DNA of 64,000 nucleotides from a virus. The notes beneath the pieces were generated by a model that was not told where the DNA came from, searched no databases, and worked only from the letters and a program-made list of their open reading frames with translations. Position numbers and translations under genes: made by a program. Shown here piece by piece: positions 13,649 to 48,702 of the stretch (position 1 is the stretch's first letter; each line of letters opens with the position of its first letter). The stretch covers positions 41,299 through 105,298 of IMG/VR virus record IMGVR_UViG_3300037258_000375; one strand, written 5' to 3'.

Positions 13649-14014
13649 CTATCCTCCACTTCGCGGCGCAATCGCCACCGTTCGTCCAGATTCCGGACTC
13701 ACTCTCCCATACGATGCCCTACGTGGCAGCCCCTTCGGCCTGCCACGGCCTTTCTTGCGAGGCACTGTCTCCACGGCTTCATCGGGAGTTTCCTGTGTGT
13801 CCAGGCGAATCATGAGCTTGTTCGTCACCGGATCGTAGCCCAACACCCTGTACGTGTGAGTCACATCGCCGATTTCCCTTTCGAGAAAGACGGCGGACCC
13901 GGACTTGATGAGATCGCCGACGAGCTTGGCAGCTTGCTTGCGGCCATCCTCGTTCGTTGTGTCGATCTCTGAGTTGTCATCGCCGGAAAAGCTATTGAGG
14001 ATTTGGATATTCAT
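13649..14014 (-). CDS. Hypothetical protein with AT-hook-like tail
   Basis: 121 residues. A small beta-rich N-terminal domain is followed by PRKKGRGRPKGLPRR, whose GRP core flanked by basic residues is an AT-hook (minor-groove DNA binding). Overlaps the PurA-like gene by 4 bases. Confidence 0.6.
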   Translation of the reverse strand: MNIQILNSFSGDDNSEIDTTNEDGRKQAAKLVGDLIKSGSAVFLEREIGDVTHTYRVLGYDPVTNKLMIRLDTQETPDEAVETVPRKKGRGRPKGLPRRASYGRVSPESGRTVAIAPRSGG

Positions 14015-15147
14015 ATGACCACCTCTGAGTACAACACCCGTTCTATCGCGCTCGGTCCATGTGCCGTGATGGCCACAGGCACACGTAGGTTCGCCGCCAT
14101 CGAGTAGAGAAAATCAACTTCCGACTCACCGATACGTGGCAGGTAGTCTAGGTGGCTCACTGCGAGGTAATCGACACCGCCGATGATTCGGAGAGCCCGC
14201 CGCGCCATGTTGAAATCGAACTGCCCCACCCGAAACTTTCCCTGAAGCGAGCTATCGGAGTTGTGTAGCTCTGGCAAATCGAGCGCTGGGTCTTCGCTCG
14301 GGAACGGACCGGCACCGTGGCGCGTGTAATAGCTGCGCAGGCAGCCGACGCGGGTACGCTCTTTGACTTTCGCTTCATCGAGAAGTGTATTCGCATTTTC
14401 GAAGGTAGTGTTCGTCCAGGTGTTGTGCGGCGCGGTGCCGTACGTCTCATCGAGCATCACGCCCTGTGCGCCCTCAAAGACCATGCATTCTTCCGGCTTG
14501 AAGTGATCGACGATCTTGGCTGGCCAACTCTCGAAGTCGGCCATGGTCCGGCTGAGAACTGCTATGTCTTTGCTGCGATGAATGACGATGCCCAGTTCTT
14601 CCCGAAGCTTCACGATCTCATCGAGAAGCATATCCGAGATAAATGTGAGCTTACGGCGGAGCGTGACCAGATTCTGCGTGTCACCAGCGTAGGGAACATA
14701 GAGCGGGTGCTTTATCTGCATCTCTCGCGCCACACCGATGCCCATTCCGCAGCTTCCATGTCTTGCATCGCCGCGCGCCATCTCGCGAAGTTGATTGAGA
14801 TGCTTATGAAACGGCGTGACCAGGAGCGCTCTCTGATCGACTGTGGTGCGGTCCCATACGTCTCCCGCCAGATTTGAAAGCTCTTCTGCCTCTCGCATCA
14901 TCGACACCGGATCGATAACCATGTAGCGCGAGAGAAATGTCTTCACGTGCGGGTTCGCCAGTGTTCCCGCTCCAAACTGCGCGAAGGTGTGGTGGTCTCC
15001 CTCTGGAGTAACCACGTTGTGCGCCGCCTGAGAGCCGCCGTTATAGCGCACCACTAGATCGACCGGATATTCACGACATAATTTATCGACACATGCCCCC
15101 TTGCCTTCGTCTCCGAAGGCAAGTCCTGCCACAAGAAATGCTTTCAT
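14011..15147 (-). CDS. Adenylosuccinate synthetase family (PurA/PurZ)
   Basis: 378 residues, shorter than host PurA (about 430), start behind GGGGGAAT. The P-loop-type GDEGKGACVDKL (~residue 12), the NGGSQAAHNV substrate loop, GSCGMGIG (counterpart of TTGRGIGP) and MVFEGAQGVMLDETYGTAP are all present. Enzymes of this family couple GTP hydrolysis to addition of aspartate to IMP, or, in phage PurZ, to dGMP for diaminopurine DNA. PurZ usually has Ser where PurA has the catalytic Asp; here the Asp is kept, so PurA-like chemistry or a PurZ0-like intermediate are both possible. First gene of the operon's 3' half. Confidence 0.88.
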   Translation of the reverse strand: MKAFLVAGLAFGDEGKGACVDKLCREYPVDLVVRYNGGSQAAHNVVTPEGDHHTFAQFGAGTLANPHVKTFLSRYMVIDPVSMMREAEELSNLAGDVWDRTTVDQRALLVTPFHKHLNQLREMARGDARHGSCGMGIGVAREMQIKHPLYVPYAGDTQNLVTLRRKLTFISDMLLDEIVKLREELGIVIHRSKDIAVLSRTMADFESWPAKIVDHFKPEECMVFEGAQGVMLDETYGTAPHNTWTNTTFENANTLLDEAKVKERTRVGCLRSYYTRHGAGPFPSEDPALDLPELHNSDSSLQGKFRVGQFDFNMARRALRIIGGVDYLAVSHLDYLPRIGESEVDFLYSMAANLRVPVAITAHGPSAIERVLYSEVVI

Positions 15148-47696: not shown

Positions 47697-48050
47697 AAAT
47701 CGAGGCCGGGTATTGCTTTGCATGGAACCCGGCGAACCACGGATAGCTGTTTTTAGGCAGCCATCGGCAACGCATTATCCTCAGCGTTTATTGGTCTGCA
47801 TCCCTTTTGCGGGCGGTAGCAGGGTTCCCGGCACGAAGCTGGAGTTCATTGATCTCGTCGAAACCTTGACGCCCCCACCAAGAAACACTGATTGAGAAAT
47901 GTCTAGCCTGTCCACGAAGCTTTTTGACCAGCTTCGCCCTCGTAGCGCCGGAATCGAACCGACGACGCAATTAGTGCTTCTTGGTGGAGGCGGCGGGAGT
48001 CGAACCCGCGTCCGAAATCAACTTCCTTCAGTGTTGACGTGCGTAACTCA
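47697..48050 (-). ncRNA. ssrA: Circularly permuted (two-piece) tmRNA gene
   Basis: In minus-strand order: an acceptor piece ending in T arm GCGGG-TTCGACT-CCCGC, CGCCTCC, A, CCA (3' end at 47992). Then an intervening segment (47877-47991). Then a coding piece starting GGGGGCG (47876) with GGTTTCGACG of the D-like loop. Acceptor strands pair over 7 bp, and GAGATCAA of the coding piece pairs with TTGATTTC of the acceptor piece as helix P2. The tag frame (47788-47753) reads NAEDNALPMAA then TAA; resume codon probably GCT. A terminator-like GCCGGGT/ACCCGGC hairpin plus TTTTT ends the gene. The 5' end of the acceptor piece is approximate. Confidence 0.85.
47877..47991 (-). other. Intervening segment of the permuted tmRNA
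   Basis: Its ends pair (AGAAGCACTAATTG with CAATCAGTGTTTCT, 13 of 14 positions), extending the acceptor stem. Internally it contains a second T-arm-like sequence (GTCGG-TTCGATT-CCGGC) and a 7-bp hairpin. Expected to be cut out when the two mature pieces form. Confidence 0.7.
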
Positions 48051-48075
48051 AATACTGCTCTCCTTTTCTTGAAAA

Positions 48076-48618
48076 TCATTGGACTTGAATATACACCGTC
48101 TTGTCTTCTGACGGGACGATTAAAAAGCTCCGGTCTGGTAAATCCGGAATCCCATGGATCAATCGCTGTCGTAGGGATTCGTGATGTACCCCATAATTCT
48201 TAGCTACCGACCGCATGGACTCACCAGACCTGATCCGCTCTCTCGCGATAGCAAGCTGGTCTTCTGAAAATCTCCTGGTCACCTCGCGTCTTCTGCGCCC
48301 ACGCGCCGGGTCATACGAGGTAATCGCTTTATCTATCTGCGATTGGCGACGAATCGACATCAATGGCCTGAGCAACTGCATCATCTGCAATATCCTCAAG
48401 CCGCCAATGTTGACAACCCAGGAATCTTTCCACTGAGGCTTACGCTTTTTCTTTCGAACTTTGTGATACTTCGCGTTTAACAACCTTGCGATTCGCGCGA
48501 TCACATCTTCATCTGTCATATTGCATGATATGCGTGGGCAATTTGGCTTAGAAGGAGGGCTACATAGAAATGACCCCTCCCCTTCAAGAATGCCAGCAAG
48601 CCAATGAAGATCATGCAT
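48076..48618 (-). CDS. LAGLIDADG-type homing endonuclease with HTH tail
   Basis: 180 residues from ATG 48618. HDLHWLAGILEGEGSFLCSP carries the LAGLIDADG motif (one copy, so it would act as a dimer). The C-terminus EDQLAIARERIRSGESMRSV, AKNYGVHHESLRQRLIHG is a resolvase-type helix-turn-helix. Inserted between the permuted tmRNA and tRNA-Asp. Confidence 0.82.
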   Translation of the reverse strand: MHDLHWLAGILEGEGSFLCSPPSKPNCPRISCNMTDEDVIARIARLLNAKYHKVRKKKRKPQWKDSWVVNIGGLRILQMMQLLRPLMSIRRQSQIDKAITSYDPARGRRRREVTRRFSEDQLAIARERIRSGESMRSVAKNYGVHHESLRQRLIHGIPDLPDRSFLIVPSEDKTVYIQVQ

Positions 48619-48626
48619 CAAAATTA

Positions 48627-48702
48627 TGGCGCGACCGACCGGGGTTGAACCGGCGACCTCTTGATCGACAATCAAGCGCTTTTCCATCTAAGCTACGGTC
48701 GC
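48627..48702 (-). tRNA. tRNA-Asp (GTC)
   Basis: Acceptor GCGACCG/CGGTCGC, anticodon stem-loop CTTGA-TTGTCGA-TCAAG, discriminator G, encoded CCA. Confidence 0.93.

What the first reader, a model, noticed from the sequence alone, without database searches (positions are those of the whole stretch)
47697..48050. Circularly permuted, two-piece tmRNA in a phage
The acceptor piece with CCA precedes the coding piece. Both acceptor strands and helix P2 pair across the 115-nt intervening segment, whose own ends pair to extend the stem. A tag frame ending ALPMAA-stop is present. Permuted ssrA genes are known in alphaproteobacteria and some other lineages; phage tmRNAs I know of are one-piece.
Basis: partly seen in the sequence, partly recalled or inferred. 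Interest (0 to 1): 0.85.

Follow-up and report, generated by a model that had tools for sequence, protein, structure and literature searches.

The report
Phage-borne permuted two-piece tmRNA gene
This phage carries an intact, rearranged (acceptor half first) gene for tmRNA, the RNA that frees stalled ribosomes; the gene is real, but hundreds of phages carry this kind and it was described in phages by 2022, so it is a new example rather than a new thing.

Summary
On the minus strand (about 48074-47703) lies a canonical circularly permuted ssrA gene. The acceptor piece, ending in CCA at 47982, comes first; then a 105-nt intervening segment (47981-47877, not 115); then the coding piece from G1 at 47876, with tag AEDNALPMAA-stop. 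Rfam's permuted model scores 101 bits and the one-piece model 32, below its cut-off. The acceptor, T-arm, P2 and extension stems are supported by compensatory changes in six phage homologues (17 pairs changed on both sides; 94.9% of cells paired against 83.5% shuffled). Two related phages carry the gene at a matching place in their tRNA arrays.

Permuted two-piece tmRNA in phages was published by 2022: 53 cases among 18,146 phage genomes. I parsed 219 distinct ones from IMG/VR. It is most likely a functional ribosome-rescue RNA using host SmpB and tRNA-processing enzymes.

Two details are unusual. The extension stem is fully paired opposite the CCA (2 of 219 genes). The intervening segment holds a tRNA T-arm-like hairpin (7 of 168 segments, 0.28 expected). 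Novelty: new member of a known kind.

The parts
47982..48074 (-). acceptor piece (tRNA-like 3' part): P2 5' strand, T-arm, acceptor 3' strand, discriminator A and CCA (47984-47982); the 5' end is ARAGORN's estimate
   Evidence: RF04321 101.2 bits; ARAGORN; coordinates read from the sequence
47877..47981 (-). intervening segment of 105 nt, predicted to be removed; its first and last bases extend the acceptor stem
   Evidence: fold -60.8 kcal/mol, z -7.1; extension stem covaries in phage homologues and in 101 and then 219 viral genes
47946..47964 (-). tRNA T-arm-like hairpin CGTCGGTTCGATTCCGGCG inside the intervening segment
   Evidence: sequence; 7 of 168 viral intervening-segment clusters have such an arm against 0.28 expected; absent from the segments of the window's relatives
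47703..47876 (-). coding piece: acceptor 5' strand GGGGGCG (47876-47870), D-loop-like GGTTTCGAC, P2 3' strand, resume site, tag; the 3' end is uncertain (ARAGORN runs to 47662)
   Evidence: RF04321 and alpha_tmRNA matches; ARAGORN
47753..47785 (-). tag reading frame GCT GAG GAT AAT GCG TTG CCG ATG GCT GCC TAA = AEDNALPMAA-stop
   Evidence: ARAGORN; only synonymous differences in the last six codons among five phage genes
47705..47733 (-). 7-bp hairpin near the 3' end of the coding piece (GCCGGGU ... ACCCGGC)
   Evidence: fold; the same hairpin with changed pairs in L193, L065, L192 and L194
48627..48702 (-). tRNA-Asp(GTC), neighbour in the tRNA array (29 tRNAs plus the tmRNA in this record)
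   Evidence: ARAGORN; tRNA-Asp also flanks the tmRNA in G048 and G029

Best explanation
An intact phage-encoded permuted ssrA gene. The array transcript folds so that the acceptor strands and P2 pair across the intervening segment, whose ends prolong the acceptor stem. Host tRNA-processing enzymes (RNase P at G1; nucleases on the CCA side) remove the segment and leave two RNAs held together by the acceptor stem and P2. Host AlaRS charges it through G3:U70. With host SmpB, since none was found in the record, it enters ribosomes stalled on broken or phage-degraded mRNA, resumes at GCU, adds (A)AEDNALPMAA and releases the ribosome and a tagged peptide. Shown here: gene architecture, conserved pairing, tag conservation, occurrence in related phages. 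Inferred: processing, charging, SmpB use, tagging, and benefit to the phage during infection.
For: RF04321 101.2 bits over the full model, one-piece model 31.9 bits, below cut-off. Six-phage alignment: 94.9% of cells paired, 17 of 39 pairs changed on both sides, 0 of 500 shuffles as high, partners slid by 1-3 columns fall to 43-51%. G3:U70 in 218 of 219 viral permuted genes including this one. Tag: D/P and N/F/Y vary, but ALPMAA changes only synonymously at four of six codons. Present in a close relative (G048) and a distant one (G029) at a matching array position. No SmpB found in four phage records. Precedent in PMC9004378.
Against: No expression, processing or tagging data. Two long relatives with closer terminases (L054, L015; 134 and 133 kb) show no permuted tmRNA, so the gene is dispensable. 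The extension stem is fully paired through ACCA, which might hinder RNase P; 217 of 219 relatives lack this. Three of the five tag-family genes also matched the tag pattern by construction, although L065, L193 and L194 were found by other patterns as well.
Confidence: 0.85

Rival explanations
1. A decoy or modulator: the phage RNA competes with host tmRNA for SmpB and ribosomes, or adds a poorly degraded tag (ending PMAA), so that stalled phage products are released but not destroyed.
For: Tag ends MAA after proline, whereas most viral permuted tags end LAA (124 of 168 clusters). A tag-less tmRNA of phage DS6A inhibits the host's tmRNA (PMC11915505).
Against: A complete, selected tag frame with resume site and stop. 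Other phages also end in MAA (14 of 168), a hydrophobic-Ala-Ala end of the normal kind.
Confidence: 0.12
2. A decaying or captured host gene with no present function in the phage.
For: Patchy presence among relatives; one element, the fully paired CCA region, departs from the norm.
Against: Compensatory changes across phages, synonymous-only change in ALPMAA, matching position in three phages. No bacterial gene with this tag form was found in 84,980 species genomes (the one hit is the end of an mnmA frame).
Confidence: 0.05
3. A one-piece tmRNA or a chance assembly of a tRNA 3' half and other sequence.
For: ARAGORN also reports a one-piece form when told to treat a 471-nt excerpt as circular, which is only the permutation read round.
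Against: RF00023 31.9 bits against 101.2 for the permuted model; covariation.
Confidence: 0.01

Closest known systems
Permuted two-piece tmRNA of phage Melnitz and other (mostly aquatic) phages (PMC9004378)
   Same: Phage-encoded, circularly permuted ssrA found by ARAGORN; in phages with tRNA genes.
   Different: Different phage lineage (nearest isolates infect Acidobacteriota from tundra soil); no glutamine riboswitch found here; different tag.
tmRNA_permuted, Rfam RF04321 (PMC11915505), with alpha_tmRNA RF01849 and beta_tmRNA RF01850
   Same: Full-length match, 101.2 bits; alpha model 57.3 bits passes its cut-off of 50.
   Different: Fits no bacterial subtype well: beta 79.9 bits is below its cut-off of 84, cyano 35.8 is below 70; the intervening segment is 105 nt.
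Unannotated permuted tmRNA of Tunturiibacter phage Tunturi_4 (PP885687)
   Same: Same extension stem, CCACCAAGAAGCACT paired with AGTGTTTCTTTGTGGGG.
   Different: Intervening segment of 154 nt; tag frame uncertain; its paper lists it only as one unknown tRNA.
IMG/VR phages G048 (3300032893_000006) and G029 (3300043788_000114)
   Same: Relatives of this phage with a permuted tmRNA in the tRNA array; tags AEDNALPMAA and AEPFALPMAA.
   Different: C75 mismatch retained opposite CCA; intervening segments without a T-arm-like hairpin.

Membership tests
permuted tmRNA (RF04321) | acceptor piece with T-arm and CCA 5' of the coding piece | tested here: met
   RF04321 101.2 bits, cut-off 47; ARAGORN permuted
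permuted tmRNA (RF04321) | 7-bp acceptor stem with G3:U70 | tested here: met
   GGGGGCG pairs with CGCCUCC; covariation at pairs 4 and 5
permuted tmRNA (RF04321) | P2 pairing between the two pieces | tested here: met
   GCACG/CGTGC changes to GCATG/CATGC in four relatives; inner P2 100% paired over six pairs
permuted tmRNA (RF04321) | tag reading frame with resume codon and stop | tested here: met
   AEDNALPMAA*; synonymous-only change in ALPMAA
permuted tmRNA (RF04321) | pseudoknots (PK1 and others) | not tested
   a plausible PK1 can be drawn by eye; no test was run
permuted tmRNA (RF04321) | transcript cleaved into two pieces; alanine charging; tagging | not testable with these tools
   needs RNA mapping, charging assays and mass spectrometry
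standard one-piece tmRNA (RF00023) | 5' domain upstream of tag and 3' domain in one piece, above cut-off | tested here: not met
   31.9 bits, cut-off 47
beta- and cyano-type two-piece tmRNA (RF01850, RF01851) | score above the curated cut-off | tested here: not met
   beta 79.9 of 84; cyano 35.8 of 70
alpha-type two-piece tmRNA (RF01849) | score above the curated cut-off | tested here: met
   57.3 of 50, but the beta model scores higher in the sensitive search, so alpha ancestry is not settled

The most novel reading that the evidence does not exclude
The intervening segment of some phage permuted tmRNAs is not a passive spacer but carries a second tRNA-like T-arm, derived from phage tRNA genes, that helps tRNA-processing enzymes remove it. 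In several genes the arm sits right beside the extension stem, as a T-arm sits on an acceptor stem. In this phage it may compensate for the fully paired CCA region.
Probability: 0.12. Interest if true: 0.55.

Novelty: new member of a known kind. Interest (0 to 1): 0.27.

Why it matters
It adds a well-supported case of phage two-piece tmRNA from a lineage whose nearest isolates infect soil Acidobacteriota; published cases were mostly aquatic. It also gives a set of 219 distinct phage genes showing that extension of the acceptor stem by the intervening segment is a rule, with a conserved mismatch opposite the CCA. That makes the processing of two-piece tmRNA testable, and a minority carrying T-arm-like elements in the removed segment is a lead on how it is excised or where it came from.

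Tried and rejected
One-piece tmRNA: rejected by score. DNA similarity to isolated phages: only short tRNA-domain matches, the best being Tunturi_4. A search of 84,980 bacterial and archaeal species genomes for the tag codons gave one hit, the C-terminus of an mnmA reading frame, hence chance. A paralogous tmRNA elsewhere in the record: none. A complete tRNA hidden in the intervening segment: ARAGORN finds none. The host's own tmRNA form (Acidobacteriota) could not be checked: no genome of that phylum was reachable, and no paper on it was found. My first parser for the viral set was off by one base and returned one gene; the corrected run is. It also failed to parse the bacterial permuted genes, so bacterial intervening segments were not compared.

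Full report
WHAT IS THERE. The window is bases 41299-105298 of a 105,298-base IMG/VR virus record. On the minus strand, inside a tRNA array (29 tRNAs), lies one permuted tmRNA gene. Reading 5' to 3' on that strand: the acceptor piece with P2 strand, T-arm, acceptor 3' strand, discriminator A (47985) and CCA (47984-47982); a 105-nt intervening segment (47981-47877); and the coding piece starting GGGGGCG at 47876, with GGTTTCGAC, the P2 partner, a tag frame AEDNALPMAA-stop (47785-47753) and a terminal hairpin. RF04321 matches its full length at 101.2 bits; ARAGORN agrees. The one-piece model reaches 31.9 bits, below its cut-off of 47.

IS IT SELECTED. I found five homologues with the same kind of gene. 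L193 (record G048, tag AEDNALPMAA), L065/L181 (G029, AEPFALPMAA), L192 (G047, AEPYALPMAA) and L194 (G049, ATAEPFALPMAA) come. The fifth is Tunturiibacter phage Tunturi_4. On their alignment with the window, the acceptor, T-arm, P2 and extension helices give 94.9% paired cells against 83.5% in shuffles, 17 pairs with a change on both sides against 6.3, and no shuffle of 500 as high; sliding the partners by 1-3 columns gives 43-51%. The structure was read from the window, so the slid control is favourable by design, but the both-sided changes are not. In the tag, ALPMAA shows only synonymous changes at four of six codons while the third and fourth residues vary. L192 was found only through the tag pattern; L065, L193 and L194 also came up in scans that ignored the tag.

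RELATED PHAGES. G048 shares one 420-aa protein of the structural-gene region at 95% identity and much of its gene content; G029 is more distant (the same protein 69%, terminase 50%). In both, the tmRNA sits in the tRNA array next to tRNA-Asp, as here. Among 46 records with a related terminase only G029 has a permuted tmRNA. Most are fragments, but two of about 133 kb (L015, L054) with closer terminases (65-66%) lack it, so the gene is accessory. No SmpB was found in four of these records, while the control genomes with SmpB were detected; the RNA must use the host's.

HOST. Unproven. The portal and terminase have their best isolate matches in Tunturi_1 and Tunturi_2 (28% identity), and the tmRNA in Tunturi_4, all phages of Acidobacteriota from Arctic tundra (PMC11924767). 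Whether Acidobacteriota themselves have permuted tmRNA could not be checked here.

HOW COMMON. Permuted two-piece tmRNA in phages is not new. PMC9004378 (2022) counted 53 in 18,146 phage genomes, 50 of them from marine or aquatic samples, and the tmRNA database paper holds 79 phage tmRNAs of all forms and 11,946 permuted genes. Isolates include Tunturi_4 and Stenotrophomonas phage Bhz51, annotated simply as ssrA. IMG/VR contigs can include bacterial sequence, so the total is approximate.

THE EXTENDED STEM IS THE RULE. In the first set of 101 distinct viral genes, intervening-segment positions 3-10 pair with their partners in 95-98% of genes, against 41-87% when partners are swapped between genes, with abundant both-sided changes. 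The larger set gives 89-97% against 42-81%. G3:U70 is present in 218 of 219. Opposite the CCA there is nearly always a mismatch at C74 or C75; only the window and L365 are fully paired there. I infer that this mismatch eases processing.

T-ARM-LIKE HAIRPINS IN THE INTERVENING SEGMENT. The window's segment holds GTCGG-TTCGATT-CCGGC, a perfect tRNA T-arm by sequence. Such arms occur in 7 of 168 cluster representatives against a mean of 0.28 (maximum 2) in 100 dinucleotide shuffles, and none on the reverse strand. In L136, L162, L172 and L226 the arm ends 15-17 nt before the coding piece, beside the extension stem; in the window it lies on the other side, so one function for all is doubtful. Relics of tRNA genes, which crowd these arrays, are the simpler reading. 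The search was made after seeing the window's arm; without the window it is still 6 of 167.

MECHANISM. Best reading: functional trans-translation supplied by the phage. Shown: architecture, conserved pairing, tag selection, conservation in relatives. Inferred: cleavage by host tRNA-processing enzymes, alanine charging, SmpB use and tagging. A decoy role or a tag chosen to avoid degradation is not excluded.

VERDICT. Observation confirmed, interpretation right in kind, surprise overstated. New member of a known kind.

Noticed in passing
window 47946-47964 (-), and intervening segments of L066, L136, L162, L172, L226, L414: tRNA T-arm-like hairpins inside the intervening segments of phage permuted tmRNAs, 7 of 168 clusters against 0.28 expected.
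   Followed up: partly
window 47877-47880 against 47982-47985 (-): Extension stem fully paired opposite A73-C74-C75-A76; only 2 of 219 viral permuted tmRNAs show this, the rest keep a mismatch.
   Followed up: partly
window 14011-15147 (-): Adenylosuccinate-synthetase-like protein matching PHROG 1211 (E 5.8e-66) and PF00709: possible PurZ, hinting at 2-aminoadenine in the phage DNA.
   Followed up: no
L002 10553-13507 (-), i.e. record G000 outside the window: Terminase large subunit of 984 aa that appears to contain an intein (weak PF14890 match); many relatives align in a shorter form.
   Followed up: no
window 48076-48687 (-): HNH-endonuclease-like reading frame (PHROG 5046) ending directly upstream of the tmRNA acceptor piece; another HNH at 44140-44691.
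   Followed up: no
window 42602-44254 (-): 550-aa protein weakly matching PHROG 850, RNA-binding protein, inside the tRNA array; 76% identical in G048.
   Followed up: no
L195 1119-1466 and 1437-1971 (phage Tunturi_4, PP885687): Unannotated permuted tmRNA directly downstream of an RF-1-domain release factor gene: two possible ribosome-rescue functions side by side; the paper reports only one unknown tRNA.
   Followed up: partly
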